A stretch of 48,274 bases of DNA from an uncultured Bacilli bacterium. GTDB taxonomy: Bacteria > Bacillota_I > Bacilli_A > RF39 > UBA660. How positions within the stretch are numbered: position 1 is the first letter of the stretch; each line of letters begins with the position of its first letter. The stretch spans positions 1 to 48,274 of the forward strand of contig CANRDD010000003.1 in assembly GCA_947629305.1 (NCBI GenBank), given 5' to 3'. Of the stretch, positions 146 to 38,494 are shown one piece after another. Made by a program: the position numbers and the translations under genes. Below the pieces are notes generated by a model. That model was given only the letters and a program-made list of their open reading frames with translations, was not told where the DNA came from and ran no database searches.

Positions 146-904
146 ATGCGTATTTTTAGAAAAATATTTTTAGGAATGCTCATCTTTGGTTTTGCTATTA
201 CAAATGTTGGGGCAGCTAGTGAAAAGTGTGGAACGAAAAAAACGGCAGAACTAAATAGAGAAGTGGCAAATGTTAAAGCAAATTATGAAATTCTGCAAAG
301 ATTGCCTGAAGGACCTTATGGACCACCTGACTGGTGGACACCTGATATGGGGGAAGATGTTCTCCCTAGAGAAGATTATATGAAGGTTAACATTACAAAC
401 TTATCAGAAAATTTTTATGCGGAAGTTACTAATGATCAAAACAGAGATAAGATTACATTGACAGCAAATGATATGGTTGATGGTATTGCTTCTTTTGAAA
501 GAGATGATTTTAGTAAAGTTGTTAGGTTAACAATTAAAATATATGCAACAGATGTAGCTGGATGTGCTGGTCAAGAATTTAAAACATTAAGACTAACATT
601 ACCAAGAAGTAATATATATTCTGGTTATGATGTTTGTAGTCTTGTTCCAGATTATTATTTATGTCAAAAATATGTTACTTTTGAAAAAGAAATAACAGAT
701 AATGATTTTAGTATAGGTATTAATAAACAACTAGAAGAAATATACCAAGAAGAAGAGGAAGAAACAAGAACATGGTGGGAAAATGTTCTAAAGTTTGTTA
801 AAGATAACTTAGTTATCGTAGTAATTGGGGGAGTATTAGTAATAGGAGCAGGAACTACTGCAACTATTATAATAATTAGAAATCGTAGGAGAAGAGAAAT
901 ATGA
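146..904 (+). CDS. Secreted, C-terminally membrane-anchored protein of unknown function
   Basis: A 252-residue protein. It begins with a signal peptide (MRIFRKIFLGMLIFGFAI, likely cut after GAA near residue 24). The extracellular part of about 190 residues has a Pro/Trp-rich stretch (residues ~53-68) and four Cys residues that could form disulfides. An acidic EEEEE stretch leads into a transmembrane helix (residues ~223-246) and a positive RNRRRREI tail. This layout fits anchoring in the membrane with the bulk outside. There is no LPxTG-like motif before the helix, so sortase attachment is unlikely. The stop overlaps the next gene's start (ATGA), which indicates translational coupling with the large Cys-rich protein. 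I do not recognise the family. From context it may be a base or anchor component of the appendage. Confidence 0.75.
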   Translation: MRIFRKIFLGMLIFGFAITNVGAASEKCGTKKTAELNREVANVKANYEILQRLPEGPYGPPDWWTPDMGEDVLPREDYMKVNITNLSENFYAEVTNDQNRDKITLTANDMVDGIASFERDDFSKVVRLTIKIYATDVAGCAGQEFKTLRLTLPRSNIYSGYDVCSLVPDYYLCQKYVTFEKEITDNDFSIGINKQLEEIYQEEEEETRTWWENVLKFVKDNLVIVVIGGVLVIGAGTTATIIIIRNRRRREI

Positions 905-6226: not shown

Positions 6227-7027
6227 ATGGGAAATTTAATTAATACAATAAAAAGATTTTTTACGAATAAAAATACAGTAACTATATTTGGCGTAATTGC
6301 TGGTGTTGTTGTTTTATGGTTCTTTTATAATTATCGTTTAAATCAAGCTATAAATCCAACGAAAGTACCTATTGCAACAAGAACGATTCTAGCAACAGAA
6401 GAAATAACCGCGGATGCTATTGATTATGTGGAAATAAATAGTGCTTTACTTAAAAAAGCGAAGATAATAACTAATCAAAGTCAATTAATAGGTTATTATG
6501 TTAATGTTGGAACATCTATTCCAGAAGGTGGTTTATTCTATACATCCCAAGTTGTTCAAAAAAAGGAATTACCTAATGCTATTCAAGATGAAATACCAGA
6601 AGGATTTACTTTATTCCAATTTAATGTAAATAATACTTCGACATATGGTAATTCCATTTATCCTGGGGATAGAATTGATATTTATTTAAATACAACTGAT
6701 GAACAAGGAAGATTAGTTTTTGGTAAATTTATTGAATCAATTGAAGTTCTTGATGTTCGGGATTCTCAAGGACAAAGTGTCTTTGATTCCTCAAGTACAA
6801 GAACCCCAGCTCTATTATTATTTGCTGTTCCTTCTGATCCTGTTGAAGATGGTAAATCAATCTTTGGTTTACTAGAAGGAGCAAGAAGAATATCTGGCAT
6901 AGATTTAGTACCTGTACCAAGAAATAAACATTATACGGAAGAACAAAATGAAACACAAGTAGCATCGGCTGATTTAAGAGATTTAATTGAATCAAAGATG
7001 AGTGCTTTAGATATTGATATTCCATAG
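6227..7027 (+). CDS. cpaB: CpaB/RcpC-like pilus assembly protein with SAF domain
   Basis: A 266-residue protein with an N-terminal transmembrane helix (residues ~17-34) and an extracytoplasmic SAF-like domain (residues ~44-110, VPIATRTILATEEITADAID and GYYVNVGTSIPEGGLFYTS), which is the hallmark of the CpaB/RcpC family of Tad pilus loci. In diderms CpaB interacts with the secretin and periplasm; in a monoderm it probably contacts the wall or the pilus base. The C-terminal ~140 residues include a beta-rich RcpC-like part (PGDRIDIYLNT). The start has a strong AAGGAGG and lies 15 nt after the peptidase-fusion gene. The cpaF ATPase follows, as in standard tad order. Confidence 0.85.
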   Translation: MGNLINTIKRFFTNKNTVTIFGVIAGVVVLWFFYNYRLNQAINPTKVPIATRTILATEEITADAIDYVEINSALLKKAKIITNQSQLIGYYVNVGTSIPEGGLFYTSQVVQKKELPNAIQDEIPEGFTLFQFNVNNTSTYGNSIYPGDRIDIYLNTTDEQGRLVFGKFIESIEVLDVRDSQGQSVFDSSSTRTPALLLFAVPSDPVEDGKSIFGLLEGARRISGIDLVPVPRNKHYTEEQNETQVASADLRDLIESKMSALDIDIP

Positions 7028-7057
7028 AAAAATAATTAATTAAAGAGGTGACAAAAA

Positions 7058-8248
7058 GTGGATGATGCTATATTTTCACAATTAGATTTTGGACCTTTAA
7101 AAGAGTTTTTGGAAGAAGATAACGTAACCGATATCTCTTATTCAGGAGGAAATACCTGGCTAAAAACTCTTGATAAAGGTGTATATAGAGTTGAAAGACC
7201 GGAGATAAATAATGCGATGATGGAAAAGCTTGCTTTCCAATGTTCAAATGTTATGGGAAAAACATTTAACATGGCGCATCCTTTTCTAGATGCTGAATCA
7301 GCTGAACTACGACTTAACTTTGTTCATGATTCCATTGCAACCAATGGTATTGCTTGTGTTGTCCGGAAGACTCCTGCCAAAATTAGATTAAATAAAGAAA
7401 AATTAATTAATGAACAATATGTTACGGAATCATTACATGACTTTTTACTTACTTGTGTAGAAGGGCATTGTAATATTATTGTTTCTGGGGAAACTGGTTC
7501 AGGGAAAACGGAATTAGTTAAATATTTAGCTAGTCATACCAAAGAAAATGAAAAAATAATTACGATTGAAGATACTTTGGAATTACACTTAGATAAGATC
7601 TTTCCACATCGGGATATAGTGGCAATGAAAACAAATAATATTGCTTCTTATTCTGATGTATTAGTAACTTGTATGCGGCAAAATCCTAAATGGATTTTAC
7701 TATCCGAAGTTCGTTCAGCTGAAGCTGTTACCGCGGTTCGGAACTCTATTTCTTCAGGACATAATATTATATCAACAATTCACTCCGATCGAGCTTTAAA
7801 TATTCCAATGCGTTTATATTCTTTACTTGAATCTAATATTGATGTTGAACAATTTTTAAATACAATTCATCGTTATGTCCAACTAGGAATTCATGTTAAA
7901 GGTTATATGAGTAAAGAATTAGGACGTTTCCAACGGGAAATCATTGAAGTAACGGAATTCTTTGTTGATGATGATAATAAAGCTTGTTCTAATGTTATTT
8001 TTAAAAAGAGTTTAGATGGTAAATTTAGTTTTAATAATCCATCAAAGTATTTAATAGATTATTTAGGGGTTCAAGGTGTAGATATAAGTCCAAATTATTT
8101 TGTTAATGAAGATGGATCTTATGTAGCAGCAAAGCCTCGTGATCCTGCACCTAGTGTTCCAGCTGAAAATAATGAAGCAAGTGGGGTAAGTAATAGCACT
8201 CCATCTATGGCTATACCAACTCAAATGCCAACGATGGATACTTTATAA
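7058..8248 (+). CDS. cpaF: CpaF/TadA-type secretion ATPase
   Basis: A 396-residue type II/IV secretion ATPase of the VirB11/CpaF family, the motor that drives pilus assembly. The Walker A motif is SGETGSGKTE (~148-157). An acidic Asp box EDTLELH follows. The Walker B region is WILLSEVRSAEA (~212), and the His-box region is SGHNIISTIHSD (~238). The N-terminal ~100 residues match the CpaF N-terminal region in length. A Pro/Ser/Asn-rich tail of ~40 residues follows the core. The start codon is GTG with AGAGGTGA 6 nt upstream. It is the only ATPase with an intact P-loop in the pilus locus, so it is presumably the sole motor. Confidence 0.93.
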   Translation: MDDAIFSQLDFGPLKEFLEEDNVTDISYSGGNTWLKTLDKGVYRVERPEINNAMMEKLAFQCSNVMGKTFNMAHPFLDAESAELRLNFVHDSIATNGIACVVRKTPAKIRLNKEKLINEQYVTESLHDFLLTCVEGHCNIIVSGETGSGKTELVKYLASHTKENEKIITIEDTLELHLDKIFPHRDIVAMKTNNIASYSDVLVTCMRQNPKWILLSEVRSAEAVTAVRNSISSGHNIISTIHSDRALNIPMRLYSLLESNIDVEQFLNTIHRYVQLGIHVKGYMSKELGRFQREIIEVTEFFVDDDNKACSNVIFKKSLDGKFSFNNPSKYLIDYLGVQGVDISPNYFVNEDGSYVAAKPRDPAPSVPAENNEASGVSNSTPSMAIPTQMPTMDTL

Positions 8249-8283
8249 AATTTACATGAAAAAAAGAAAGGATGTGAACAAAA

Positions 8284-9180
8284 TTGCTTGAATTAGTTAT
8301 AATTGTGGGTATTGCTATCTTTATTATAATTTACCGAAAGAATCCAGGGGAAAATGTATATAAAATAGTTACTGGTAAAGTTGGCGAAATATATGAAAAA
8401 TATGCGCCATATTCTTTCCGTGTTGTCAGACAAAAAGCCATTGAACTTGGTCAAGAATATAATACAAGACAATATTTAACCCAAATTGCCATGATAGGTG
8501 GTGTTGCGGCTGCAGTTGGATATTTTTACTTCTATAGTATTATTATTGCGGCAGTTTATGCTGTTGTTGCCATTTGTTTTGTTCCTTATTTATCTTATTT
8601 AAGATTACAAAGAGTATATAGTGAGTTTATTTTTGAACAAATCCAAACTTATACAACCAACGTTATTATGGAATTTAATACAACCCAAAGTTTTGTTAAA
8701 TCCTTAGAAGGTGTAAGGGACTCTGGTGTCTTAGAAAATCCTGTTTTAGCTGATGTTTCCAAGATGATTGATATGTCTTATCAAAATGGGACAATTGATG
8801 AATCAATAGAATATTTTAATTCTAAATATCCATATTATATGGTTAAGAATATGCATCAATTATTCTTACAAATTACCAAAGAAGGGGCTAAAGATTCAGG
8901 TCAAGCCTTAGAAAATATGTCCATGGATATTGACTCATTAGTTGAAGGGGTTTATAGGGATCAAATGGATCGGAAAAACTTCCATGGAAGATTTATAAAA
9001 TTTGGTTTAATTCTTTATTTACTTATTGTTGTTATTAGATATATGTTAGGGGAAGAAAATTATATTTCCATGTTAGAGATATGGTATGTTCAATTAATAT
9101 TACATGCTATAGCCATTATTAATTCGTTATTCTTAATAAGTGGTGAAAAATATTATAATGAAGATGTTGGGGTGGAATAA
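8284..9180 (+). CDS. tadB: TadB-like inner-membrane pilus assembly protein
   Basis: A 298-residue membrane protein. Hydrophobic segments lie at residues ~1-18, ~66-105, ~236-255 and ~265-285, around a cytoplasmic GspF-like helical domain (residues ~110-230). This is the TadB/TadC-type layout. Together with the next gene it would form the membrane platform on which CpaF acts. The start is TTG with AAAGGATG upstream. The stop overlaps the next start (AATAATG region), indicating coupling. Assignment to TadB rests on gene order cpaF-tadB-tadC as much as on sequence. Confidence 0.8.
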   Translation: MLELVIIVGIAIFIIIYRKNPGENVYKIVTGKVGEIYEKYAPYSFRVVRQKAIELGQEYNTRQYLTQIAMIGGVAAAVGYFYFYSIIIAAVYAVVAICFVPYLSYLRLQRVYSEFIFEQIQTYTTNVIMEFNTTQSFVKSLEGVRDSGVLENPVLADVSKMIDMSYQNGTIDESIEYFNSKYPYYMVKNMHQLFLQITKEGAKDSGQALENMSMDIDSLVEGVYRDQMDRKNFHGRFIKFGLILYLLIVVIRYMLGEENYISMLEIWYVQLILHAIAIINSLFLISGEKYYNEDVGVE

Positions 9181-9968
9181 TGCAAATAGAAATTATTATT
9201 ATTGCAATTATTATCTTTTTAATTATGACTGTCGGAGGACAAATAAGTATTAATCAATTAATTAATGATAATCAAATGCTATTTATGAAATTAAAAGAAA
9301 GTGATTGGGATTTTTATATTAGAGCCCGTTATGGATCTAATGCTAATTCTGATGTTATGTTTAATAAAAGAATTAAAAATGCTTTAATAGTCATGGTTTT
9401 AGCTTTCTTTTTCTTTATTAGAGATATTAATGCTGTTAAAGTTCTTTTAATTTTAGTGGTAGGTTATTTTATCTTTAAAATGCCTTATAATAATATTAAA
9501 AAATATTATAAGAGTCATATTCATCAAATAGATGCTATGTTACCTCATTATTTAAAAAGTTTAGAAATATTAATTCAACACTATACTGTTCCTGTTGCCA
9601 TAGGTAAATCAATGTCTGATGCTCCAGATATCTTTAAGGAAGGTTTACAAACAATGATTGATTCGATTAATGCTGGAGATGATTCAATTGAACCATATAT
9701 GGCTTTTGCGAGGGAATACCCTGTTCGGGATTCTATGCGGATGATGCGTCTTTTATATAGACTTAGTTTAGGTAGACAAGAAAGAAAACAAGAACAATTA
9801 TTAACTTTTTCTAGATCAATCTCTAGTTTACAACAAAAAGCTAGAGAAACAAAATATAAAAATAGACTAGAAAAGATGGAAGGCAAAACAATGAGTATGT
9901 TAATAACAACAGGTATTGGGGTTATGGTTTTATTAGTTCTTGCTGTTGTTCAATTAATGGGTATTTAA
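9180..9968 (+). CDS. tadC: TadC-like inner-membrane pilus assembly protein
   Basis: A 262-residue membrane protein with an N-terminal helix, two helices near residues 66-100, a GspF-like cytoplasmic domain (residues ~115-230, including YPVRDSMRMMRLLYRLSLGRQ) and a terminal helix (~237-260). It overlaps tadB by one base, so the two are translationally coupled. It is the second half of the TadB/TadC platform. A new strong promoter follows directly, separating the machine genes from the subunit genes. Confidence 0.78.
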   Translation: MQIEIIIIAIIIFLIMTVGGQISINQLINDNQMLFMKLKESDWDFYIRARYGSNANSDVMFNKRIKNALIVMVLAFFFFIRDINAVKVLLILVVGYFIFKMPYNNIKKYYKSHIHQIDAMLPHYLKSLEILIQHYTVPVAIGKSMSDAPDIFKEGLQTMIDSINAGDDSIEPYMAFAREYPVRDSMRMMRLLYRLSLGRQERKQEQLLTFSRSISSLQQKARETKYKNRLEKMEGKTMSMLITTGIGVMVLLVLAVVQLMGI

Positions 9969-9996
9969 GGAAATATGTCAAGGATAAAAAAAAGAA

Positions 9997-10025
9997 TTGA
10001 TATTTAGATACAAATTAGGTATAAT
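9997..10025 (+). promoter_or_regulatory. Strong internal promoter ahead of the pilin-like genes
   Basis: TTGATA (9997-10002), a 17-nt spacer and a perfect TATAAT (10020-10025), followed by AAGGAGG at 10041-10047. This would raise expression of the small pilin-like genes above that of the assembly machinery, as expected for an abundant structural subunit. Confidence 0.75.
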
Positions 10026-10055
10026 AATATTAGTTGATAGAAGGAGGAATTTTTA

Positions 10056-10310
10056 ATGAAAGAAGCCACTGGTGAATTAAATATGACTGTTGTAACAGTA
10101 GTAGCTATTGCCGCGGTTGCAGCATTCTTCTATGCTTTCATTTGGCCAGGTATTAGAAATCAAATTCAAGCAAGTACTTATTGTTCTATGGCTGACTGTA
10201 ATGCTGATTCTACTGAATGTCAAGCCTATGATGATCAAGGAAATCAAACTTGGAAAGGTAGTTGCAAAGCATACTTTGATCGACAAAATGATAAAAGTAC
10301 AGGTAATTAA
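10056..10310 (+). CDS. Small pilin-like protein, paralogue 1
   Basis: An 84-residue protein: a very short N-terminus MKEATGELN, a hydrophobic helix (residues ~11-29), a conserved FIWPGI motif, and a hydrophilic C-terminal part with four Cys residues (CSMADCN plus two more). Size, single N-terminal helix and position after TadBC match Flp-type pilins, but the leader is far shorter than usual and there is no typical G/xxxxE cleavage site. The next gene begins with the same MKEATGELN and shares the IWP and CxAxCN pattern, so they are paralogues. It has its own strong promoter and the best Shine-Dalgarno site of the locus. The major-subunit role is inferred. Confidence 0.75.
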   Translation: MKEATGELNMTVVTVVAIAAVAAFFYAFIWPGIRNQIQASTYCSMADCNADSTECQAYDDQGNQTWKGSCKAYFDRQNDKSTGN

Positions 10311-10340
10311 TTTATTAATTAAAATAGGAGAAATGTAAAA

Positions 10341-10577
10341 ATGAAAGAGGCGACAGGAGAATTAAATACTACGGTTATAGTTGTTATATCAGTAGGGATC
10401 TTGATGGCCTTTTTTTTCGGTGTTATATGGCCAGCATTAAATAGTAATTTTGAAAAAACAACGGGATGTAAGGCCGCGGTATGTAATTGCCAAGAACGAA
10501 TAACCCGAGATGGGATTGAATATTGTAAATGTAAGTCTAAAAATGGGGAAGAATTAATGTGTGTTTATAAAGGATGA
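10341..10577 (+). CDS. Small pilin-like protein, paralogue 2
   Basis: A 78-residue paralogue of the preceding protein: MKEATGELNTTVIVVISVG, one helix (~10-30), IWPAL, then a Cys-rich tail with seven Cys residues in about 35 (CKAAVCNC, CKCKSK). The Cys content suggests a disulfide-stabilised extracellular knot. It ends in TGA, which supports the standard code. The gap to the next gene is only 9 nt. It may be a minor or alternative subunit. Confidence 0.73.
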   Translation: MKEATGELNTTVIVVISVGILMAFFFGVIWPALNSNFEKTTGCKAAVCNCQERITRDGIEYCKCKSKNGEELMCVYKG

Positions 10578-10586
10578 TGGTAGAAG

Positions 10587-11126
10587 ATGAAAGAATCTAT
10601 TAGTATGACAACGATTTTTCAAATCGTTATTCTCTTTATTTTACTATTCACAGCAATTATGTGTTTAACAATTAATAACTCTAATGCTTTTGGCGTTAAA
10701 GATGAATTAGTTAATATTATTGAATTATCGGGAGGTAATTTTTTAGTTAATGATGGAGGAGGCAATAGATTAAATGATGAAATGGTTGAAACTATTGCTC
10801 AAGAACAATACCGTGTTACAGGTTCATGTGATAAATTAAATCAAGAACTTGGGGATAGTAGTAATCCTTATATAGGTTATCGTAAAGATGGTATGCCTGT
10901 ATCTTCAGGGGAAAAAGCTTCCGTTTGTATAAGAGAAGTAAATGTTAGAGATGCGATGGAAGATGTTTTAACTAAATCAGGAGTTAATTTTATACCCAAT
11001 GAAGCCTTAAATGGTTCTTATTATCAAGTAGTGGTTTTTTATCAATTAAATGTACCTGTAATTGAAAGTGTATATAATATGCAAACTAAGGGAGAAACAC
11101 GGATAATATATAATAAAAATAGATAG
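10587..11126 (+). CDS. TadE/F-like minor pilin
   Basis: A 179-residue protein with an N-terminal MKESISMTTIFQ, a single transmembrane helix (residues ~9-30) and an extracytoplasmic domain with two Cys residues and a C-terminal YNIKVFY-like strand segment (YYQVVVFYQLNVPVIESVYN). The layout matches TadE/TadF minor pilins (one N-terminal helix, ~150 extracellular residues). The following gene has the same layout and the same ending FYRFNLPVL, so the two are probably paired. It is part of a tightly packed run with 9-nt gaps. Confidence 0.7.
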   Translation: MKESISMTTIFQIVILFILLFTAIMCLTINNSNAFGVKDELVNIIELSGGNFLVNDGGGNRLNDEMVETIAQEQYRVTGSCDKLNQELGDSSNPYIGYRKDGMPVSSGEKASVCIREVNVRDAMEDVLTKSGVNFIPNEALNGSYYQVVVFYQLNVPVIESVYNMQTKGETRIIYNKNR

Positions 11127-11135
11127 GTGATATAG

Positions 11136-11621
11136 ATGAGAGAAGTAAGTGGAACGACTTGGTCATTTCAATTAATTATTCTTTTTATCCTTATTTTTGC
11201 TTGCTTTTTATCTTTAGTAGTTAATTATTTTCATGCTTATAGAGCTCGTAATGATATGTTAACTATTATTGAAAAATATGAAGGTATAACAAATGGTGAT
11301 AAAAATAATTCTTTAAAGATAATTAATAATGTATTAAAAGATAATGGTTATAAAACAGTTGGAGCTTGCACTAATGAAGAAGGTAATTGGATGGGAGCTT
11401 TAGATTTAGAAGGAAATGTCGAAAAAGCAAAAGAAGGAGTTAAATATTATTATTGTTTTCAAAAAGTATCAAGAGGAGATGGATCTTGGAATAGTAATAA
11501 TACCTATTATAATATAAAAGTTTTTTATCGATTTAATTTACCTGTTCTAGGACAATTAGCTACTTTTGTTATAAATGGAAGAACTAATTCTTTTGTAGGA
11601 AATCAAAATAGTATATCATAG
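11136..11621 (+). CDS. TadE/F-like minor pilin, second copy
   Basis: A 161-residue protein with MREVSGTTWSFQ, a transmembrane helix (~12-32), and an extracytoplasmic domain with two Cys residues. It ends with KVFYRFNLPVLGQ, parallel to VFYQLNVPVIESV in the upstream gene. Its N-terminus follows the M-K/R-E-x-x-G pattern shared by the locus's small proteins. A TadE/F-like role is inferred from layout and position. Confidence 0.7.
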   Translation: MREVSGTTWSFQLIILFILIFACFLSLVVNYFHAYRARNDMLTIIEKYEGITNGDKNNSLKIINNVLKDNGYKTVGACTNEEGNWMGALDLEGNVEKAKEGVKYYYCFQKVSRGDGSWNSNNTYYNIKVFYRFNLPVLGQLATFVINGRTNSFVGNQNSIS

Positions 11622-11630
11622 GAGGAAATA

Positions 11631-12617
11631 ATGAACGTCATAGTATCTAATAAATATCAAAATTTATTAAATAGTTTAAATATTGATATTATAAAAAGTA
11701 TAAATGGAGTATTTACAGTTGAAGAATTAAAGATGCAATTTGCTAATTTTTATTTTAATAAAATGATTATTGATATAACAGCAATTCAAGATTATGAAAA
11801 TATTAATGTTATTCAACTTTTGTCGGTTAATTTTGATATGGATAAAATAATTCTTTTATTAGATGATTCTCCTAAAGTTAATTCACCAATGTATTTATCA
11901 CAATTAGTATCAATGGGTGTTTATAACTTTACAAGATCAGTTGATGCTATTCCTTTTTTAATTACTAATCCTAATTCTTATAAAGATGTTGCTCAATATC
12001 ATAATTTAAGTGGGTTTAAAGCACCTAAATTAAATGAAACATCAGTTGATTATAGTAAAGGACAAATTAGTAAAAGAGTTATTGGTTTTCGTAATATTAC
12101 TTCTCATGCTGGTTCAACAACTCTTGTTTATTTAGCTAAAATGTATTTAGAAAAAGTATATAAAGTTAAAGCTGTTGAAGTAGATGGAAATGATTTTCAA
12201 TATTTTAATGATCCTAATTTAGATAGAACTGATAGTACTAGTTTAGATAAATATTTAAATGATCATGGGGAATATGATATTGTTTTAGTAGATTTAAATA
12301 CTAATTGTGATAATTTATGTGATGATGTTATATATTTAATAGAACCAGGAATATTAAAATTAAATAAGTTAATTAGTGAAAATAAACATATATTTAAAGA
12401 ATTAGAAAATAAAAAGATAGTTTTAAATAAAAGTTTATTAACAGATAAAGATATAAGTGATTTTGAAGAAGAAAGTGGGAGTAAAGTCTTTTATAATTTA
12501 CCTCCAGTTGATGATAATTTAGATAATCAAGGAATCTTTAATGCTTTTTTATCTGCTTTAGGATTTAGTAGAATAAATGGGCAAACAGATGATGGAATGT
12601 TTAATGTCTTTAATTAG
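11631..12617 (+). CDS. CpaE-like protein with degenerate P-loop
   Basis: A 328-residue soluble protein. The N-terminal ~120 residues look like the atypical receiver domain of CpaE (alpha/beta, IIDITAIQDY, IILLLDDSP). From ~145 onward it follows the MinD/ParA fold: a beta strand then ITSHAGSTTLVYLAKM where a deviant Walker A (KGGxGKTT) should be. Both the signature and the catalytic Lys are absent. A Walker-B-like strand DIVLVDLNT follows near residue 222. In Tad loci CpaE/TadZ localises the machine to its cell-envelope site; here it is probably a non-hydrolysing scaffold. No other CpaE-like gene is in this window. Confidence 0.72.
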   Translation: MNVIVSNKYQNLLNSLNIDIIKSINGVFTVEELKMQFANFYFNKMIIDITAIQDYENINVIQLLSVNFDMDKIILLLDDSPKVNSPMYLSQLVSMGVYNFTRSVDAIPFLITNPNSYKDVAQYHNLSGFKAPKLNETSVDYSKGQISKRVIGFRNITSHAGSTTLVYLAKMYLEKVYKVKAVEVDGNDFQYFNDPNLDRTDSTSLDKYLNDHGEYDIVLVDLNTNCDNLCDDVIYLIEPGILKLNKLISENKHIFKELENKKIVLNKSLLTDKDISDFEEESGSKVFYNLPPVDDNLDNQGIFNAFLSALGFSRINGQTDDGMFNVFN

Positions 12618-13621: not shown

Positions 13622-15358
13622 ATGTACGAAGAAAGTAGCCGAAAATTAAGCGTTAATTGGGTTTCTCTAGCTATCAAATTATTTTTCTTAGCGGTATTTG
13701 TTTTTTTGTTATGCTGGATATTTACCAGAAATAGTAAAGGCAATAATATTTTAGCTAGTCGTGATACCGAATATATTTCGAATATCACTGCGATGAAAGA
13801 AGCAGCTTTTGAATATTTCACTGAATCTAAATTACCTGAAAACATCGGGGGAACAAAAACTTTATCATTAAATGAAATGGTTAATCAAAAGCTATTAATT
13901 GACTTTACCGACAATGGGACTAAATGTAATACATCTAATAGTTATGTTCAAACAACAAAAACTGCTGATGGAGCTTATGCTTTAAAGGTTAGTTTAGTAT
14001 GTGGAGATACTAATGATTTTATTGTGACAACTATTGAAGAACCAAAATGTCCAAATAATACTTGTATTGCTGATTCAAATATTGATAATACTACTGATAA
14101 AGATGATGAATATGCAGATATAAATCCTGATTATCTTCCAAGTGAAGATGATAAGTATTATGATGATAAAACTGATACTTATTTACGTCCAGATGATAAT
14201 CAAACTGATAATCAACCAAGTAAGGAAGAACAACCAACAAATCCTACACCTACACCAAGTAAACCAAGTAATTCAGGATCAGGTTCGAATAAACAACAAA
14301 CATCAACGACTGTTGTTACAAAAGTTAAAATTACTATTAGTGCAGCCTGTGGTTCTTGTGTAAATAACTATTATACTGAAAATAATTATTACACAGAAAA
14401 TAATAACAATAATAATAATAATAATAACAATAATAACAATAATAACAATAATAACAATAATAATAACAATAATAACAATAATAACAATAATAACAATAAT
14501 AATAACAATAATAACAATAATAATAACAATAATAACAATGATAAGGAACCAGTGGAACCAGATAAGCCAAGTAATCCAGTGGAACCAGATGATAAACCAA
14601 CTGAACCTCAAAAAACATTATATTATTTACATATGCGTTATACTGACTGGGCTGATGGTTATAGTAATGAGGAAAATGCCCAAAATCAAAGATGTACAGT
14701 TACAACTTATGATTATTGTAAATTAAGTAGTAAAACTTACTATTCTATTGGTTATATTGCTAATACTAAAGCGGCAACTTATACATCTTCTTTACAAATT
14801 AAAGATTTAAATGCTGATGAAGTTGTTCCAGGTACTGTATCTATTTCTAATGTAAGTTATTTCAGTAATTCATTAAATGACTATAACGCTTATATAGAAA
14901 TGAAAAGACAAGAAAGTTTATATATGGTTGGTAATACAGGTAAGTATGATGTTATATTAAATAATGCAAGTTCATATAAAAATAGTGCATTAACCCAATC
15001 TAATTTTACCTTTAGTATAAGTAGTCCTTATCAAAAAGGAAATTATTACTATGTAAATCCAACAACTACAATTAAAAATGTAACAGGTGTTAATCCATAT
15101 TATGCTTCTCATTTAGGATATAGTGTTTACTTTATTCCAATGAAGTTTAATATTAATTATGCTAAAACTAGTGACTGTGTAAGAGATTTATCAACTAATG
15201 CATCTAAGTATGGTAGCAATTATAAAGCTTTAAATCCTCAAAAGGAATATACATATAGACATCGTTTTATTGAATATACTTGGAGTACAGAATCTAAATT
15301 AGATGGTTGGACTTTTACAGGTCAAACTAAATATGCAACTGAAGATCCAAAAATTTAA
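13622..15358 (+). CDS. Membrane-anchored surface protein with poly-Asn tract
   Basis: A 578-residue protein. A short cytosolic N-terminus and a transmembrane helix (residues ~16-36) lead to an extracellular domain of ~100 residues (MKEAAFEYFTESKLPENIGG through VCGDTNDFIV). A Thr/Pro/Asp-rich linker follows (~150-235), then two copies of NNYYTE and 47 consecutive Asn residues (~260-306). A Pro/Glu linker follows (EPVEPDKPSNPVEPDDKP) and finally a C-terminal domain (~330-578) ending in GWTFTGQTKY. The function is unknown. The anchor and long disordered spacer suggest a stalk that displays the C-terminal domain beyond the wall. It has its own promoter and terminator at the end of the appendage locus, so it may be functionally linked or independent. 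Confidence 0.75.
   Translation: MYEESSRKLSVNWVSLAIKLFFLAVFVFLLCWIFTRNSKGNNILASRDTEYISNITAMKEAAFEYFTESKLPENIGGTKTLSLNEMVNQKLLIDFTDNGTKCNTSNSYVQTTKTADGAYALKVSLVCGDTNDFIVTTIEEPKCPNNTCIADSNIDNTTDKDDEYADINPDYLPSEDDKYYDDKTDTYLRPDDNQTDNQPSKEEQPTNPTPTPSKPSNSGSGSNKQQTSTTVVTKVKITISAACGSCVNNYYTENNYYTENNNNNNNNNNNNNNNNNNNNNNNNNNNNNNNNNNNNNNNNNNNNNNNDKEPVEPDKPSNPVEPDDKPTEPQKTLYYLHMRYTDWADGYSNEENAQNQRCTVTTYDYCKLSSKTYYSIGYIANTKAATYTSSLQIKDLNADEVVPGTVSISNVSYFSNSLNDYNAYIEMKRQESLYMVGNTGKYDVILNNASSYKNSALTQSNFTFSISSPYQKGNYYYVNPTTTIKNVTGVNPYYASHLGYSVYFIPMKFNINYAKTSDCVRDLSTNASKYGSNYKALNPQKEYTYRHRFIEYTWSTESKLDGWTFTGQTKYATEDPKI
14399..14539 (+). repeat. 141-bp AAT/AAC trinucleotide tract (47 Asn codons)
   Basis: An uninterrupted run of AAT and AAC codons, mostly in AATAAC or AATAATAAC patterns. 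It is in frame. Slippage would change the tract length in whole codons and would not switch the gene off unless a non-triplet indel occurred. Confidence 0.95.
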
Positions 15359-32785: not shown

Positions 32786-33112
32786 ATGAATATATCCTAT
32801 TTTTTTTCGATTAAAATATTTATGAAATTAGATTTACCTTATAAGAGTAATATAAATAATATTTGTATTAATTTATTAAAAGATAATATTATTAATTATA
32901 GTAATAATTATAATTTAATAAAAGAATCGCAAATATATTTATATGCTAATTATTTAAAAGTATTTTATAATAAAAAAATATATATAATAACAATAATATC
33001 AATAAATACCTCTTTATATTGGTATTTAAAACCATGGCATAATACTTATTTATTAATTAAATATAAAACAAATATTAATTTAAATACTATTTTAACTTTA
33101 ATCCATGATTAA
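32786..33112 (+). CDS. Hypothetical protein, Ile/Asn/Tyr-rich
   Basis: A 108-residue frame with AAAAGGG 5 nt before ATG. It is rich in Ile, Asn and Tyr, as is typical of AT-rich coding here, with one hydrophobic stretch (IYIITIISINTSLYWYL, ~70-86). No family is recognised. It converges on gerM and overlaps it by 15 nt. It may be real or a chance frame in very AT-rich DNA. Confidence 0.4.
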   Translation: MNISYFFSIKIFMKLDLPYKSNINNICINLLKDNIINYSNNYNLIKESQIYLYANYLKVFYNKKIYIITIISINTSLYWYLKPWHNTYLLIKYKTNINLNTILTLIHD

Positions 33113-34027
33113 AGGGGATAAAGCTTCATCTAATACATTAAAACTTACTTCATTTACACCATAAGAATCGCGAAGAGATAAAGCAATAGAATATTTTACT
33201 TCTTCTAATATTTTATCATCATTTAAATTAGCAATTAAATAATTATCAAATGATAAAGATATACTATTTTCTAATAATTCATAATTAACTAAATTAGTTG
33301 AAGATGCTAAATAACTAATTAAATTAGTATGATAAATTGGTGTCGTTTTTAATTCTTTAATTATTATTTCTACTTTTTCACAATTTTCATTACTTATTGT
33401 TGTTACAGGAACATAATAATATAAATCATTATTTTTACTTAAATAATATACTGTTGTTTTACTAGTATCTTTAATAGAATCTAAATTATATATTTTATTA
33501 ATACCATAACTTTTATCTAATATAGCTGGTATTTTTTTCCCACTGGGCATTTTCATTAAAGGTTTATTATCTACATATAAACTTATTTTATTTATTTCTT
33601 TAAGTTCAGTTAAAGAATAAAGAATGGCTTCAATTAATTTTTCTTCATCATCTTTTTTAACATTTAAAATATTTTGATCAAAATTAAGTTTTAATAAACC
33701 ATCATTTAAATCAAAATTTAAAAGATGGGTATTTTCTGGTATTATAGCCATGAATCCTTCAGGAATATAACTAGACTTAGGACTATTTATAGTTAATGTT
33801 TCAATAATTTGACTAATTATTTCGTTTATTTCCTTTTTATTTTTAACAACACTCGTTCGGGCAACATATTCCATTTTATCAATTAAAAAAATTGGTAATT
33901 TTTCAGCTTCAATATAAGTTAAAGATTCTGATATACTTTCTTTCGTGGGAAAAATATATATAATTAATAAAATTATTAAAGCTAATGTTGCAATCATAAT
34001 TCTTCTTATTGACGATTTTTTTAACAT
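33098..34027 (-). CDS. gerM: GerM-like sporulation protein with two GerMN domains
   Basis: A 309-residue protein with an N-terminal transmembrane segment (~9-28) and two GerMN repeats (~60-165 and ~190-305), each with the pattern of helix, then INDGLLKLNF- or ENSISLSFDN-type strands and an ending resembling ISLYVDNKPL or VSFNVLDEAL. GerM of B. subtilis has the same tandem and helps assemble the SpoIIIAH-SpoIIQ channel between mother cell and forespore. The N-terminus here has no lipobox Cys, unlike the B. subtilis lipoprotein. It is the third gene of the minus-strand sporulation block. Confidence 0.85.
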   Translation of the reverse strand: MLKKSSIRRIMIATLALIILLIIYIFPTKESISESLTYIEAEKLPIFLIDKMEYVARTSVVKNKKEINEIISQIIETLTINSPKSSYIPEGFMAIIPENTHLLNFDLNDGLLKLNFDQNILNVKKDDEEKLIEAILYSLTELKEINKISLYVDNKPLMKMPSGKKIPAILDKSYGINKIYNLDSIKDTSKTTVYYLSKNNDLYYYVPVTTISNENCEKVEIIIKELKTTPIYHTNLISYLASSTNLVNYELLENSISLSFDNYLIANLNDDKILEEVKYSIALSLRDSYGVNEVSFNVLDEALSPLIMD

Positions 34028-34061: not shown

Positions 34062-34086
34062 AAAAAAAAAGACCTTAGTCTTTTTA
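34062..34086 (-). terminator. gerE terminator
   Basis: On the minus strand AAAAAGAC, 4-nt loop, GTCTTTTTTTTT, starting at the gerE stop codon. Confidence 0.8.
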
Positions 34087-34293
34087 AGAAATATTTAAAA
34101 TTCCCATGCGAATAAGTTCTACGACAGCTCCAGCTCTTCCTTTAACACCTAGTTTTTGAATAGCATTGGAGATATGATTCCGCACAGTTTTTTCACTTAT
34201 TTTTAATTCTTGGGCTATTTCCTTTGTTGATTTATTTAAAACAAGTAGGGAAAATACTTCTTGTTCCCGATCTGTTAAGATGCTTTTTTTCAT
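34084..34293 (-). CDS. gerE: GerE, late sporulation transcription factor
   Basis: A 69-residue LuxR-type helix-turn-helix protein with no sensor domain, which is the exact form of GerE. Its core LTDREQEVFSLLV...KSTKEIAQELKISEKTVRNHISNAIQKLGVKGRAGAVVELIRMG is strikingly close to B. subtilis GerE (quoted in parts: ISEKTVRNHISNA, QKLGVKGR, VVEL.RMG). GerE acts late in the mother cell with sigma-K to control coat genes. The frame extends to GTG 34302, but AAAGG lies 8 nt before ATG 34293. It lies between spoIIIAH and gerM. Confidence 0.93.
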   Translation of the reverse strand: MKKSILTDREQEVFSLLVLNKSTKEIAQELKISEKTVRNHISNAIQKLGVKGRAGAVVELIRMGILNIS

Positions 34294-34321
34294 AAACTTC
34301 ACCTTTCTTATTCTAAAAATA

Positions 34322-34366: not shown

Positions 34367-34852
34367 TTATTCAAACTTAACTGTTATATACTTTTGGGTA
34401 TTATATAAACTTTGTACTTCCCGAATGATATTATTAGCTAGTTCATTTGAATGTTCTTTACTAGAACATATAATACTAATAGTATCATTATTAAGTTTAA
34501 CAAAAGTATCAAATTTAAATTTTTCTTTAATTAATTTTTCAATTTTTTCTGTTTCACTCTTTTGATTACTAAGAGCTTGTAAACTATTATAGGCATCATT
34601 TTTTTCTTCTAAAGAAGCCGCGGTATCAAGTAAAATATTTTGATAATTTTCAATTTGCTTTAATATTTCTTCATCTTCACTAACTCTTAAAGCGACAATT
34701 ACATCTGATTCTTTAACCTCCAAAACATCAGAGACATCATTGTTTCCAGCTAAGACACTTAAAGTATCATCATCCATCGTGACATAATAAATACCTAAAA
34801 CTAAAATTAGGGAAAATAAGGTTATAAACCATAAATTTTGTTTGTTAATCAT
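34367..34852 (-). CDS. spoIIIAH: SpoIIIAH-like sporulation channel protein
   Basis: A 161-residue protein. The N-terminus MINKQNLWFITLFSLILVLGIYYV is the SpoIIIAH pattern (Lys-Gln-x-x-Trp then a membrane helix), followed by an acidic linker, a helical region (~60-110) and a C-terminal ring-building domain (FKFDTFVKLNNDTISIICSS..., ending NTQKYITVKFE). It contacts SpoIIQ across the intermembrane space. In B. subtilis it is the eighth gene of spoIIIA; here it stands apart from the other spoIIIA genes. Upstream, on its coding strand, GCTCATATAGTT resembles a sigma-E -10. Confidence 0.87.
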   Translation of the reverse strand: MINKQNLWFITLFSLILVLGIYYVTMDDDTLSVLAGNNDVSDVLEVKESDVIVALRVSEDEEILKQIENYQNILLDTAASLEEKNDAYNSLQALSNQKSETEKIEKLIKEKFKFDTFVKLNNDTISIICSSKEHSNELANNIIREVQSLYNTQKYITVKFE

Positions 34853-34973
34853 TTCTTCATCCTTTCTTATTCTAATTAACTATATGAGCTTTTTTTAAAA
34901 ATATTTAAAAAAATTTAAGAAAAAAAAAGGAAATTGGGCATCTATCGGATTATATATATATGAAGGGAGAATT

Positions 34974-37031
34974 TTGGAATATATGCAAACGGTTAAACAA
35001 CACGATACAAAAGACTGTGGAGCATGCTGTCTTTTAGCCATTATTAAATATTATAAAGGGAATGTTCCTTTAGAGAAAGTTCGTCTTGATGCTAAAGTTA
35101 CATCAAGAGGAACCTCGGCTTTAAATTTAATTGAAGCAAGTAAAAAATATGGTTTTGAAGCCATGGGGGTTAAGGTTGATAATCTTCAACAGGACAATAT
35201 AAAATTGCCAGCTATAGCTCATATAATTACTAAAAATGGTTTAGAACATTTCGTTGTTATTTATAAAATTAAATCATCAGTGCTTTATATCATGGATCCA
35301 GCTAAAGGAAAAATAATAATGAAAACGAGTGAGTTTAATAAACTTTGGGATCATGTTTTATTACTTTTTTATCCCAAGATGCCTATTATTTTTATGAAGT
35401 CTAATAATAGTTTATTAACTTTATTTTTAAAAATAATAGGTAAACAAAAAACATTATTCTTAAGTATTATTATAACTAGTAGTATTTTATGTTTTTTAAC
35501 CATTATCAATAGTTTTTATTTAAAAGTTGTTGTTGAAGCGATAAATGAGGGTTGTGATTTATCTTATATTTATTTTTGGTTAATAGTTTTTTCTTTTTTA
35601 CTTTTATTTAAACTATTATTTTCTAATATGCGAAAAGTTTTAGAAAATCACTTAAATAAAAATATTGATACACTACTTTTAGCCCAATTTATTGAGCATA
35701 TTTTCCATCTTCCTTTAAGTTCAATAGAAGCTAGAACAAGTGGAGAGATTATGACAAGGGTAGGTGAAGTTTTAAATATTAAATCTCTTTTCACAGATAT
35801 CTTTATTAATACTTTTTTAGATTTATTTCTAGCTTTAAGTATTATGCCTATTTTATATATAATTAACATTTCGTTACTTAAAATAATCCTTCTTTTTCTA
35901 ATAATTTATTTTCTAATAAATTTAGGAATAAATAAAATAGTTTATAAAAAGGCATATCAAAATATTGAACTAGAAGCTGAGTTTAATACCACATTACTTG
36001 AAGCCTTAAATATGTTAGTTAGTTTAAAAAACTTACAAAAAGTAAAGATAGCTTTACAAAAAATAGAAGAAAAGCTATCGAACTATTTGTATGATAACTT
36101 TAAAGTTGTTCAGTTTTTAAATAATCAAAATAATTTAAAAATATGGTTAAATGAAATAGGTTTATTTTTAATTAATGGTTTAGGATTTATTTTGATTTAT
36201 CAAAATAAATTATCTTTAACTAATTTAATTACTTTTAATACCTTACTTACCTTTTTCTTAGAACCTTTAAAACATATCATGGATACTATACCTAAATTAT
36301 TATTTATTAAAGCTAGTTTTACCAAAATTAATGAATTTTTAAGTATTGAAGAAGAAAAGGAGGGAAATAGTAAGTACTTAGATAATTATGATTTAGAGAT
36401 TACTAGTTTAAAATATAGTTATAATAATTATGATTTAGTTATTAATAATTTAAATGTAGAAATAAAGATGGGGGAAGTAGTCTTATTAAAAGGGGCAAGT
36501 GGGACGGGTAAATCAACTTTATGTAAGATTTTAACTAAAAGTATTGTAGATTATCAAGGTAATATTTTAATTGCTAACTATAATCTAAAAGATTATAGTT
36601 TAGCAGTAATAAGAAATAATATTACTTATGTATCCCAAAGAGAAAGTTTATGCACGGGTACAATTAAAGATAATATTTGTTTAGGTAAAATGGTTGATGA
36701 GAAAAGATTTTTAGAAGTATGCAGGATTTGTCATATTGAAAATATTGTTAGTAGTAAACCTTTAAGATATAATACGATAATTAATAATGAATCAAGTTTT
36801 ATCTCGGGAGGAGAAAGACAAAGAATTATTTTAGCTAGAGCTTTAATGGAAGATGCAAATATTTATTTAATTGATGAAGCTTTAAGTGAAGTCGATTATG
36901 CTTTAGAAAGATCTATTTTAAATAATTTATTTATCTTTTTAAAAGGAAAAACTATTATTTATATTACCCATAAAAATCAAGATGATTTATTTAAACATAT
37001 TCTTTACTTGGAGGCTAAAAATGGATTATAA
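34974..37031 (+). CDS. Peptidase-containing ABC transporter (C39 bacteriocin exporter)
   Basis: A 685-residue exporter that cuts double-glycine leaders and exports the mature peptide. Residues ~1-130 form a C39 peptidase: HDTKDCGACC (catalytic Cys ~15), His in GLEHFVVIY (~90) and IMDPAKG (Asp ~107). Six membrane helices lie between ~155 and ~440. The nucleotide-binding domain has Walker A GASGTGKST (~508), signature SGGERQR (~611) and Walker B IYLIDEALSEVD. The start is TTG 34974 (4 nt from AAGGGAG) or ATG 34983. Two small double-glycine peptides follow in the same operon, which are its probable substrates. Confidence 0.93.
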   Translation: MEYMQTVKQHDTKDCGACCLLAIIKYYKGNVPLEKVRLDAKVTSRGTSALNLIEASKKYGFEAMGVKVDNLQQDNIKLPAIAHIITKNGLEHFVVIYKIKSSVLYIMDPAKGKIIMKTSEFNKLWDHVLLLFYPKMPIIFMKSNNSLLTLFLKIIGKQKTLFLSIIITSSILCFLTIINSFYLKVVVEAINEGCDLSYIYFWLIVFSFLLLFKLLFSNMRKVLENHLNKNIDTLLLAQFIEHIFHLPLSSIEARTSGEIMTRVGEVLNIKSLFTDIFINTFLDLFLALSIMPILYIINISLLKIILLFLIIYFLINLGINKIVYKKAYQNIELEAEFNTTLLEALNMLVSLKNLQKVKIALQKIEEKLSNYLYDNFKVVQFLNNQNNLKIWLNEIGLFLINGLGFILIYQNKLSLTNLITFNTLLTFFLEPLKHIMDTIPKLLFIKASFTKINEFLSIEEEKEGNSKYLDNYDLEITSLKYSYNNYDLVINNLNVEIKMGEVVLLKGASGTGKSTLCKILTKSIVDYQGNILIANYNLKDYSLAVIRNNITYVSQRESLCTGTIKDNICLGKMVDEKRFLEVCRICHIENIVSSKPLRYNTIINNESSFISGGERQRIILARALMEDANIYLIDEALSEVDYALERSILNNLFIFLKGKTIIYITHKNQDDLFKHILYLEAKNGL

Positions 37032-37428
37032 TACGCTTTTAAATATTAAAGTACCTTTAAAATTATTTTACACAATTTTAATATTTATTTTTCTTTTAGC
37101 TTTAATAATTATAAGTAATTTAAAGTATTATGAAACCAAAGATTATGAAGGTATATATCAAGATAATTTAATTAAAATAAATGTTTACCAAAAAGACCTT
37201 GATACAATATTAAATGGAACATTTATTAAAATTAATAACCAAAAATATAATTATCAAATAATCTCTTTAAGTGAAGTAATTATAGATAATAATAAAAACT
37301 ATCAAATAATAAGTATCCAAATTAATAATCAATTTTGGCCTAATGAAGTATTAAATATAAAAGCTTATGCTCATAAAGAAAGTATTAAAGAAAAAATATT
37401 AAAATATATAGGAAAGGAGATGGAATAA
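37021..37428 (+). CDS. Bacteriocin-locus accessory or immunity membrane protein
   Basis: A 135-residue protein with one N-terminal membrane helix (~12-33) and an extracytoplasmic beta-rich region (~45-120, IKINVYQKDLDTILNGTFIKIN, YQIISIQI). It resembles a truncated HlyD-type accessory subunit: short barrel-like domain but no coiled-coil hairpin. It could instead be the immunity protein, which is otherwise missing from the locus. GGAGG is 7 nt before ATG 37021, which overlaps the exporter by 11 nt, and the stop abuts the start of the first peptide gene, so all four genes are coupled. Confidence 0.65.
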   Translation: MDYNTLLNIKVPLKLFYTILIFIFLLALIIISNLKYYETKDYEGIYQDNLIKINVYQKDLDTILNGTFIKINNQKYNYQIISLSEVIIDNNKNYQIISIQINNQFWPNEVLNIKAYAHKESIKEKILKYIGKEME

Positions 37429-37578
37429 ATGGTTTTATCAAAAGAAGAATTAACCAAAGTTCAAGGGGGAAGTAAAACCCTCTGGTTTATCGTCGGGGTT
37501 ATAGGTACTTTTTTAGCCGGATTATTTGATGGTATCGTTAATCCTAATCGTTGTAATTCTGATTCTGATTCTGATTAA
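37429..37578 (+). CDS. Double-glycine-leader bacteriocin-like peptide, chain 1
   Basis: A 49-residue peptide that starts at the base after the preceding stop. The leader MVLSKEELTKVQGG ends in GG, the C39 peptidase site, with the leader pattern LSxxELxxVxGG. The mature part (~35 residues) begins SKTLWFIVGVIG and has a hydrophobic helix with GxxxG-type spacing (GLFDG) and a polar Asp/Ser-rich end (SDSDSD). The SD GAAAGGAG is upstream. Small Gly-rich helices with GxxxG motifs are typical of two-peptide (class IIb) bacteriocins. Confidence 0.85.
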   Translation: MVLSKEELTKVQGGSKTLWFIVGVIGTFLAGLFDGIVNPNRCNSDSDSD

Positions 37579-37605
37579 TTTAAACTTTAGAAAGGAGGTT
37601 TTAAA

Positions 37606-37767
37606 ATGGAATTAAGTAAGCAAGAGTTAAAAAACATCGTAGGAGGAGAGTCTATAGGGACAGTGATTAATGCCATTACTAAAGCATTTTCGACGATTTT
37701 TGACTTTGGTCGTTCAGTAGGTTCTGCTTTAAGAAGAATAACAAGTAAAAAATATTGCGAAATATAG
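37606..37767 (+). CDS. Double-glycine-leader bacteriocin-like peptide, chain 2
   Basis: A 53-residue peptide. The leader MELSKQELKNIVGG ends in GG, and the match to chain 1 (LSK-x-EL-x-x-V-x-GG) shows both are made for the same exporter. The mature chain (39 residues) has an amphipathic helix with GxxxG (GRSVG) and a basic end (RRITSKKYC). It starts 27 nt after chain 1 with a perfect AAAGGAGG. It is more basic than chain 1, which suits the two chains of a heteromeric bacteriocin. Confidence 0.85.
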   Translation: MELSKQELKNIVGGESIGTVINAITKAFSTIFDFGRSVGSALRRITSKKYCEI

Positions 37768-37871: not shown

Positions 37872-38057
37872 ATGACAAAAGTTGTGGTTAAAAATGGCGA
37901 TGTTGAATATGCTTTAAAAAAGTTTAAAGCTAAATTTGCCAAGAGCGGTGTCCCTTCTGAAGTGAAGAAAAGAAAACACTATGAAAAACCTGGAGTAAAA
38001 AGAAGAAATGAAATTAAAGAAGGAATTAAAAATTCCCATAAGAAAAATCGAGGTTAA
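37872..38057 (+). CDS. rpsU: 30S ribosomal protein S21
   Basis: A 61-residue basic protein with the S21 pattern: VKNGDVEYALKKFKAKFAKSG followed by EVKKRKHYEKPGVKRR. It is the small-subunit protein near the anti-Shine-Dalgarno end of 16S rRNA. Strong AAGGAGGG. Only 2 nt separate it from the yqeY-like gene, the usual pairing. Confidence 0.95.
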   Translation: MTKVVVKNGDVEYALKKFKAKFAKSGVPSEVKKRKHYEKPGVKRRNEIKEGIKNSHKKNRG

Positions 38058-38059
38058 AA

Positions 38060-38494
38060 ATGAATGCACAAATTAATGAAGATTTAAAGGTTGCAATGAA
38101 AAACCAAGATAAGTTTACTTTATCAGTCTTAAGAATGCTTAAAAGTGCTTTACAATTAGAAAGTATTAGTAAGAAACATGAATTAGATGATAATGAAGTT
38201 ATTGCCGTATTAAAAAAACAAGTTAAGTTACGAAAAGATTCAATCACGGAGTTTGCTAAATTTGCTAAAGATGATAAAATCGCGGATTTAGAAAAAGAAA
38301 TTGCCATAATAGATAAATACTTACCTCAAGAAGCATCAAAGGAAGAAATTGAAAAGGTTATTGATGAGTGCTTTAGCATCCTTAAACCAACATCAATTAA
38401 AGACATGGGGCAAGTAATGAAGGAAGTAACTAAGAAATTAAATAATGCGGATATGGCTTTAGTTAGTAAGCTTGTCAAAGAAAAATTACAGTAA
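38060..38494 (+). CDS. yqeY: GatB/YqeY domain-containing protein
   Basis: A 144-residue YqeY-family protein, similar to the C-terminal domain of GatB that contacts tRNA in the Asp/Glu amidotransferase complex. It shows the family's LKVAMKNQDKFTLSVLRMLKSAL start, KEIAIIDKYLPQ motif and a C-terminal GQVMKEVTKK...D. Its role as a free protein is not established. The rpsU-yqeY pair is a widely conserved arrangement. Confidence 0.93.
   Translation: MNAQINEDLKVAMKNQDKFTLSVLRMLKSALQLESISKKHELDDNEVIAVLKKQVKLRKDSITEFAKFAKDDKIADLEKEIAIIDKYLPQEASKEEIEKVIDECFSILKPTSIKDMGQVMKEVTKKLNNADMALVSKLVKEKLQ

What the first reader, a model, noticed from the sequence alone, without database searches (positions are those of the whole stretch)
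37429..37767. Two overlooked double-glycine bacteriocin peptides behind a C39 exporter
Both peptides (49 and 53 residues) are too short for most gene callers. Each has an LSxxEL-type leader ending in GG and a helical mature part with a GxxxG motif (GLFDG and GRSVG), one acidic at the end and one basic. With the exporter and the coupled small membrane protein this is a four-gene bacteriocin locus, probably a two-peptide type. I cannot say that these exact peptides are new.
Basis: partly seen in the sequence, partly recalled or inferred. Interest (0 to 1): 0.65.

Follow-up and report, generated by a model that had tools for sequence, protein, structure and literature searches.

The report
Core two-peptide secretion system, bacteriocin-like
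A pair of tiny secreted peptides that looks like a two-part bacterial toxin turns out to be a near-universal inherited part of a large group of tiny-genome uncultured bacteria, without an obvious self-protection gene, so its job may be more basic than occasional chemical warfare.

Summary
Window 37429-37578 and 37606-37767 encode two double-glycine-leader peptides (A and B) behind a full C39 peptidase-ABC exporter. The two-peptide reading is well supported: independent HMMs from other genera find both (2.4e-16 and 2.3e-23), and the most conserved features of the mature parts are one GxxxG motif and one Cys in each. 'A four-gene bacteriocin locus' undersells it. The exporter occurs in 28/30 genomes of the genus and 135/145 genomes across the family's genera. 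Peptide B is found in 183/193 genomes of the order, mostly single copy and at one chromosomal place, down to 0.5-0.6 Mb genomes, and is not found full length in roughly 340 other genomes of the class. Peptides evolve under purifying selection like the exporter. No immunity gene is conserved; the small membrane protein is missing in 26/90 loci. A promoter with sigma-H -35 and spacing (AGGAAAT-N14) is conserved upstream. Best reading: an ancient, lineage-core class IIb-like peptide pair, exported by a ComA/PCAT-type transporter, most likely membrane-active on neighbours in stationary phase. Killing is not shown. A core developmental or envelope role is the main rival.

The parts
34926..34954 (+). 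promoter-like element upstream of exporter: AGGAAAT (34928-34934), N13-14, -10-like GATTATA (34948-34954)
   Evidence: conserved among relatives: AGGAWWW-N14-15-[GCT][AT]AT in 34 of 87 exporter upstream regions vs about 2.7 expected, 0 of 178 control upstream regions; near-identical copies elsewhere in own genome
34974..37031 (+). C39 peptidase-containing ABC exporter (PCAT/ComA type); start TTG 34974 or, by comparison with relatives, ATG 34983
   Evidence: Pfam PF03412+PF00664+PF00005; profile matches PCAT1 4ry2 2.1e-171 and ComA 8hf4 1.6e-160 over full length
37021..37428 (+). small single-TM protein with extracytoplasmic beta-rich domain, overlapping the exporter gene; possible export accessory
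   Evidence: no family match over cut-off; AF2 single-sequence helix 13-35 then beta strands, pLDDT 63; no significant fold match; relatives in 64/90 loci
37429..37578 (+). peptide A precursor; predicted cleavage after GG (residues 13-14), mature part 37471-37575; GxxxG residues 31-35 (37519-37533), Cys42 (37552-37554)
37606..37767 (+). peptide B precursor; predicted cleavage after GG (residues 13-14), mature part 37648-37764; GxxxG residues 35-39 (37708-37722), Cys51 (37756-37758)
34367..34852 (-). SpoIIIAH (context; conserved divergent neighbour in many genera)
   Evidence: PF12685 8.5e-13
34084..34302 (-). GerE-type LuxR regulator (context)
   Evidence: PF00196 2.4e-19
33098..34027 (-). GerM-like Germane protein (context)
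   Evidence: PF10646 3.7e-22
37872..38494 (+). ribosomal protein S21 and YqeY (context; conserved downstream neighbours)

Best explanation
The locus is an ancient, vertically inherited two-peptide secretion system that is core to one order of small-genome Bacilli (probably RF39; inferred). Exporter, peptide A and peptide B form the invariant unit. The C39 domain cuts both leaders after GG and the transporter exports A (hydrophobic helix ending in GxxxG and P-x-x-C) and B (amphipathic helix ending in GxxxG, then a basic RR stretch and a Cys). Outside the cell A and B pair helix to helix through their GxxxG motifs, probably also through a disulfide between their single C-terminal Cys residues, and insert into membranes of neighbouring cells: a class IIb bacteriocin-like activity, switched on from a sigma-H-type promoter at the transition to stationary phase. 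Shown by comparison: conservation, pairing, export and processing machinery, purifying selection, promoter element. Inferred: GxxxG pairing, disulfide, sigma-H use, membrane attack.
For: Near-universality: exporter in 28/30 genus genomes and 135/145 genomes of the family, 144 genera sampled; peptide B HMM in 183/193 genomes, 79/83 genera of the order; G056, G065 and G067, which missed the 1e-40 cut, have divergent exporters with A and B beside them. Synteny with S21-YqeY-YqfC-YqfD...Era and with SpoIIIAH-GerE-GerM. GxxxG glycines invariant or >=90% in both peptides over 37-42 sequences, one invariant Cys each. C-terminal Cys tails are both present (73, or 74 after inspection) or both absent (18) in adjacent pairs; the only real mismatch involves an extra paralogue. 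pN/pS of mature peptides mostly 0.05-0.4, like the exporter. Five of eight chosen peptide A relatives exceed the NCBIfam cut-off for class IIb family TIGR03949. Exporter is full-length homologous to PCAT1 and ComA. Sigma-H-like factor in canonical rlmB-sigH-secE-nusG synteny; promoter -35 and spacing fit the published sigma-H consensus (PMC4754846).
Against: No activity data. A toxin carried by nearly every member of an order, with no conserved immunity gene and little diversification, is odd for a bacteriocin. The -10 part of the promoter rarely equals the sigma-H GAAT (2 of 87). No disulfide evidence beyond sequence. Non-independence: the Cys-less pairs come mainly from one subgroup of the genus.
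Confidence: 0.5

Rival explanations
1. The pair is not a weapon but a core cell-surface or developmental factor of the producer: A and B insert into the producer's own envelope, for example at the transition to sporulation or in division, which is why nearly every member keeps it and no immunity gene is needed.
For: Order-wide retention, down to 0.5-0.6 Mb genomes; no conserved immunity gene; purifying selection; conserved neighbourhood with SpoIIIAH-GerE-GerM; sigma-H-type promoter.
Against: Retained in genomes without detectable SpoIIIAH such as G083, G087, G141, so not a sporulation-only role; leaders, GxxxG motifs and exporter are all of bacteriocin type; pair duplications and faster-evolving extra pairs in some genus members look like weapon diversification.
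Confidence: 0.27
2. An ordinary class IIb bacteriocin locus with the 37021-37428 membrane protein as immunity protein.
For: Four-gene order exporter-membrane protein-A-B in the window and its genus; class IIb HMM hits; bacteriocin immunity proteins are often small proteins encoded in the operon.
Against: Membrane protein absent in 26 of 90 loci and single where peptide pairs are doubled; vertical core distribution, fixed locus, little diversification; only distant exporter matches on viral contigs and plasmids.
Confidence: 0.12
3. The peptides are kin or quorum signals (pheromones) exported by the transporter and sensed by neighbours.
For: ComA-type exporter; GG leaders similar to ComC in single members; conserved rather than diversified.
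Against: No histidine kinase, response regulator or similar receptor is conserved near the locus; two longer hydrophobic or amphipathic helices with GxxxG are unlike known pheromones; a fixed pair is not needed for signalling.
Confidence: 0.08

Closest known systems
Class IIb two-peptide bacteriocins (lactobin A/cerein 7B family TIGR03949; lactococcin G)
   Same: GG leaders, two short helical peptides each with GxxxG, dedicated C39 ABC exporter; several peptide A relatives pass the TIGR03949 cut-off
   Different: Window peptides stay below all family cut-offs apart from the leader model in B; one invariant Cys in each peptide; no conserved immunity gene; core to an order rather than strain-specific
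CibAB/CibC of Streptococcus pneumoniae and CabAB of S. mitis (PMC13059744)
   Same: Two-peptide GG bacteriocins with GxxxG, exported by ComAB, under an alternative sigma factor; CibAB universal in its species
   Different: Here cis-encoded exporter, no CibC-like immunity gene, present across more than 130 genera, no competence regulator seen; link to competence genes not supported by a promoter test
PCAT1 and ComA exporters
   Same: Full-length C39-TMD-NBD homology, 2.1e-171 and 1.6e-160; catalytic residues invariant
   Different: Substrates differ; window exporter below the TIGR01193 curated cut-off
Caulobacter CdzC/CdzD contact-dependent two-protein bacteriocin (PMC5380434)
   Same: Two small exported glycine-motif proteins, stationary-phase induced
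   Different: Type I secretion system and a dedicated immunity protein CdzI; no sequence comparison made here
Mbov_0121-type C39 exporters of mollicutes (compare JCVI-syn3A 0401, PMC6609329)
   Same: Second-best NCBIfam hit of the exporter, 6.5e-94, below cut-off
   Different: No A/B-like peptide near five mollicute exporters examined

Membership tests
Class IIb two-peptide bacteriocin | two different GG-leader peptides encoded together | tested here: met
   One A and one B in 81 of 94 loci with a hit, two of each in 7
Class IIb two-peptide bacteriocin | GxxxG or GxxxG-like motif in both mature peptides | tested here: met
   G31/G35 of A >=90%/100%, G35/G39 of B 100% conserved
Class IIb two-peptide bacteriocin | dedicated C39 ABC exporter in the operon | tested here: met
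Class IIb two-peptide bacteriocin | dedicated immunity protein gene next to the peptides | tested here: not met
   No neighbour other than exporter, A and B is constant; candidate membrane protein absent in 26/90 loci. Immunity encoded elsewhere is not excluded
Class IIb two-peptide bacteriocin | antibacterial activity requiring both peptides | not testable with these tools
   needs synthetic peptides
NCBIfam TIGR03949 (lactobin A/cerein 7B) | score over curated cut-off 21.5 bits | tested here: inconclusive
   Window A 15.4 bits (below); five of eight chosen relatives 25.3-32.3 bits (above)
Pfam PF10439 Bacteriocin_IIc | score over gathering cut-off 27.1 | tested here: not met
   window A 19.2 bits
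PCAT-type exporter (C39 peptidase-ABC) | C39 peptidase with catalytic Cys/His/Asp, TMD and NBD in one chain | tested here: met
sigma-H regulon | promoter AGGRWWW-N14-15-GAAW and a sigma-H gene | tested here: inconclusive
   -35 and spacing strongly conserved, -10 usually not GAAW; sigma-H-like gene in rlmB-secE-nusG synteny, below TIGR02859 cut-off
Quorum pheromone (ComC type) | linked receptor kinase or regulator | tested here: not met
   none conserved within about 4 kb

The most novel reading that the evidence does not exclude
A GG-leader peptide pair of bacteriocin build has been domesticated into an essential or near-essential core function (own-envelope assembly, transition-phase differentiation or kin interaction) of a whole bacterial order, working as a disulfide-linked A-B heterodimer and needing no immunity protein.
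Probability: 0.27. Interest if true: 0.85.

Novelty: new variant of a known kind. Interest (0 to 1): 0.62.

Why it matters
Bacteriocins are usually strain-level, mobile and fast-changing. A two-peptide GG system that is mostly single-copy, at a fixed place and under purifying selection in well over 130 genera, and survives reduction to 0.5-0.6 Mb, asks what such peptides do when they stop being optional. It makes a direct test possible: two peptides of 35-39 residues, easily synthesised, from an uncultured lineage, with a clear chemical prediction (A-B disulfide, GxxxG pairing). If antimicrobial, it would be one of the most widely carried bacteriocin systems known in its habitat; if not, it would be a new use for bacteriocin-type peptides.

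Tried and rejected
Mollicute link: the exporter resembles the Mbov_0121 type, so the neighbourhoods of five mollicute C39 exporters were read in code 4; no A/B or GG peptide nearby. Competence link: ComEC in 16/18 and a PilB/ComGA-like ATPase in 17/18 genomes, ATPase adjacent to the peptides in three genomes, but no convincing matching promoter upstream of it; the own assembly lacks a ComEC hit. Sporulation-only role: SpoIIIAH missing in several exporter-positive genomes. Regulon by promoter motif in own genome: 14 hits vs 18 for the control pattern; only four long near-identical copies stand out, three in front of transposase-like or other ORFs, read as a copied promoter. Fold of the membrane protein: weak model, no significant PDB match; relatives were not added because genome-search loci are not among those the folding tool admits. 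Named relatives: the genome-contig scan found only distant ABC transporters, so the lineage name RF39 is inferred. Viral contigs and plasmids: only distant exporters. Literature: no description of this system in the RF39 papers searched; a large survey of class II bacteriocins in gut genomes exists (IIBacFinder, commented in PMC12648078) whose primary data were not available, so single precursors may already sit in its lists.

Full report
What is there. The window is contig C3 of a 1.14 Mb draft genome. A C39 peptidase-ABC exporter (34974 or 34983 to 37031) is followed, with an 11-base overlap, by a 135-residue single-TM protein (37021-37428), then peptide A (37429-37578) and peptide B (37606-37767), then ribosomal protein S21 and YqeY. 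Upstream on the other strand lie SpoIIIAH, a GerE-type regulator and a GerM-like protein. HMMs made only from peptides of other genera single out these two ORFs among 1041 window fragments, at 2.4e-16 and 2.3e-23.

It is a core locus. The exporter is found in 28 of 30 genomes of the genus at 47-63% identity outside the window's own genome, one copy each, and in 135 of 145 genomes that represent 144 genera of the family. Three of the ten apparent absences (G056, G065, G067) turned out to have a divergent exporter with A and B beside it. In the genus and in further genera the downstream neighbours are again A and B; in 39 genera 38 loci carry A and 37 carry B by strict clustering. The peptide B HMM finds 183 of 193 genomes of the order, all of one family in this sample, mostly at 1e-15 to 1e-24 and mostly once per genome. 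Outside the family, about 340 other genomes of the class and about 370 genomes in a phylum sample gave no full-length match, only matches to the leader part. The smallest genomes, 0.5-0.6 Mb (G083, G087, G141), keep exporter, A and B. The place is conserved: S21-YqeY-YqfC-YqfD-...-Era downstream, SpoIIIAH-GerE-GerM upstream in many genera.

What is conserved in the peptides. In A, over 42 sequences, the second glycine of the leader GG, G35 and C42 are invariant and G31 and P39 nearly so; in B, over 37 sequences, GG, G35, G39 and C51 are invariant and R44 nearly so. G31/G35 and G35/G39 are exactly the GxxxG motifs. These two alignments left out the second, Cys-less pairs of some genus members. 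Loci hold one A and one B (81 of 94 with a hit) or two of each (7). In adjacent A-B pairs the C-terminal Cys tail is present in both (73 scored, one more on inspection) or missing in both (18); the one real exception concerns an extra A-like paralogue in L042. This also holds within genomes that carry one pair of each kind. The Cys-less pairs lie in one genus subgroup, so the number of independent events is small. Between close relatives pN/pS of the mature peptides is mostly 0.05-0.4, the same as the exporter, with some extra pairs faster (0.6-0.8).

What is not conserved. The small membrane protein has a relative in 64 of 90 loci and is missing in the others, several of which have A starting right behind the exporter; it stays single where the peptide pair is doubled. 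Clustering of all neighbours within about 4 kb in 39 genera shows no other conserved gene that could give immunity. Its model (TM helix, then beta strands; pLDDT 63) has no significant match. I take it as a possible export accessory; this is a guess.

Expression. In front of the exporter most genera show A-rich sequence, AGGAAAT or a close variant, about 14 bases, an AT-rich -10 and a GAAGGGAG-type ribosome-binding site. AGGAWWW-N14-15-[GCT][AT]AT occurs in 34 of 87 regions against about 2.7 expected, and in none of 178 upstream regions of neighbouring genes. The published sigma-H consensus is (A/G)(A/C)AGG(A/G)WWW-N11-12-(A/G)(A/G)(A/C)GAAW (PMC4754846), i.e. the same -35 and spacing; the -10 GAAW is rarely met, so assignment to sigma-H is inference. 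A sigma-H-like gene sits in the canonical rlmB-sigH-secE-nusG order in this genome and in a 0.6 Mb relative, and a full-length hit was found in all 16 genomes tested, below the curated cut-off.

How it most likely works. C39 cleavage after GG and export through a transporter homologous to PCAT1 and ComA are close to certain from family knowledge. Pairing of A and B through GxxxG follows the established model of class IIb bacteriocins (PMC13059744, PMC10059821). A disulfide between the single Cys residues is my inference from invariance and co-occurrence. Action on membranes of neighbouring cells at the transition to stationary phase is the best-supported function by analogy (CibAB, CabAB, Cdz), about even odds. 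The absence of an immunity gene, the purifying selection and the near-universality speak for a more basic role, which I keep at about one in four.

Known or new. The exporter is an ordinary PCAT. The peptides work like class IIb bacteriocins and some A relatives pass the TIGR03949 cut-off, but the window peptides do not, one defining feature (linked immunity gene) was tested and not met, and activity is untested; so I do not file it as a proven member. I found no description of the system in the RF39 literature searched; a gut-wide survey of class II bacteriocins may list individual precursors. The name RF39 rests on gene content, genome size and a class that includes TGA=Trp mollicutes; no named relative was retrieved.

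Limits. Genomes are drafts; the order sample contained one family only; all functional statements rest on sequence.

Noticed in passing
L215:5039-5431(-), L216 and L217:5170-5583(+), L225; further hits in G647, G656, G668, G670: A conserved 96-141 aa protein with a GG leader (MQKLKDNELKDIKGG|AASGALLNGIGSIIGKTGDFIID...KFKMGNSSFEFDD) in a TGA=Trp mollicute family. It is a candidate for the missing double-glycine substrate of mollicute C39 exporters (compare JCVI-syn3A 0401, PMC6609329). It is not adjacent to the exporter.
   Followed up: partly
L218, L219, L221 (4788-4862), L222: Another conserved 55-80 aa GG-leader peptide (GGEAITLT...AVICYRLFMSSxGxTTLPGGFxFxW) in two other Bacilli families; in L218 and L221 it lies between valS and radC without an exporter next to it.
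   Followed up: partly
window 34926-34954; G000 C14:19241-19269(-), C41:8345-8373, C50:6663-6691 (L272, L276, L278): A near-identical 29-base copy of the exporter promoter stands in front of PD-(D/E)XK/Rpn transposase-like or other ORFs elsewhere in the genome; looks like a copied promoter.
   Followed up: partly
L300 (G087 C4:10017-11153), L301 (G034 C76:2859-3992), L062 10426-12267: A PilB/ComGA-type ATPase gene lies right beside the peptide pair in three genomes (convergent in two, downstream in one).
   Followed up: partly
window 6227-12617: Run of genes resembling a Tad-type pilus operon (SAF/CpaB-like, CpaF-type ATPase, two TadB/C-like membrane proteins, pseudopilin-like proteins, CpaE-like), preceded by large surface-type proteins (146-4605).
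   Followed up: no
L044, L046, L049, L050, L052, L053: Two peptide pairs per locus: one mostly with the Cys tail, one with a GxFCGFF-type A and a Cys-less B; in L053/L057 and, for A, in L044/L050 the upstream pair evolves faster.
   Followed up: partly
window 13622-15358: Surface-type protein with a long uninterrupted run of asparagines.
   Followed up: no
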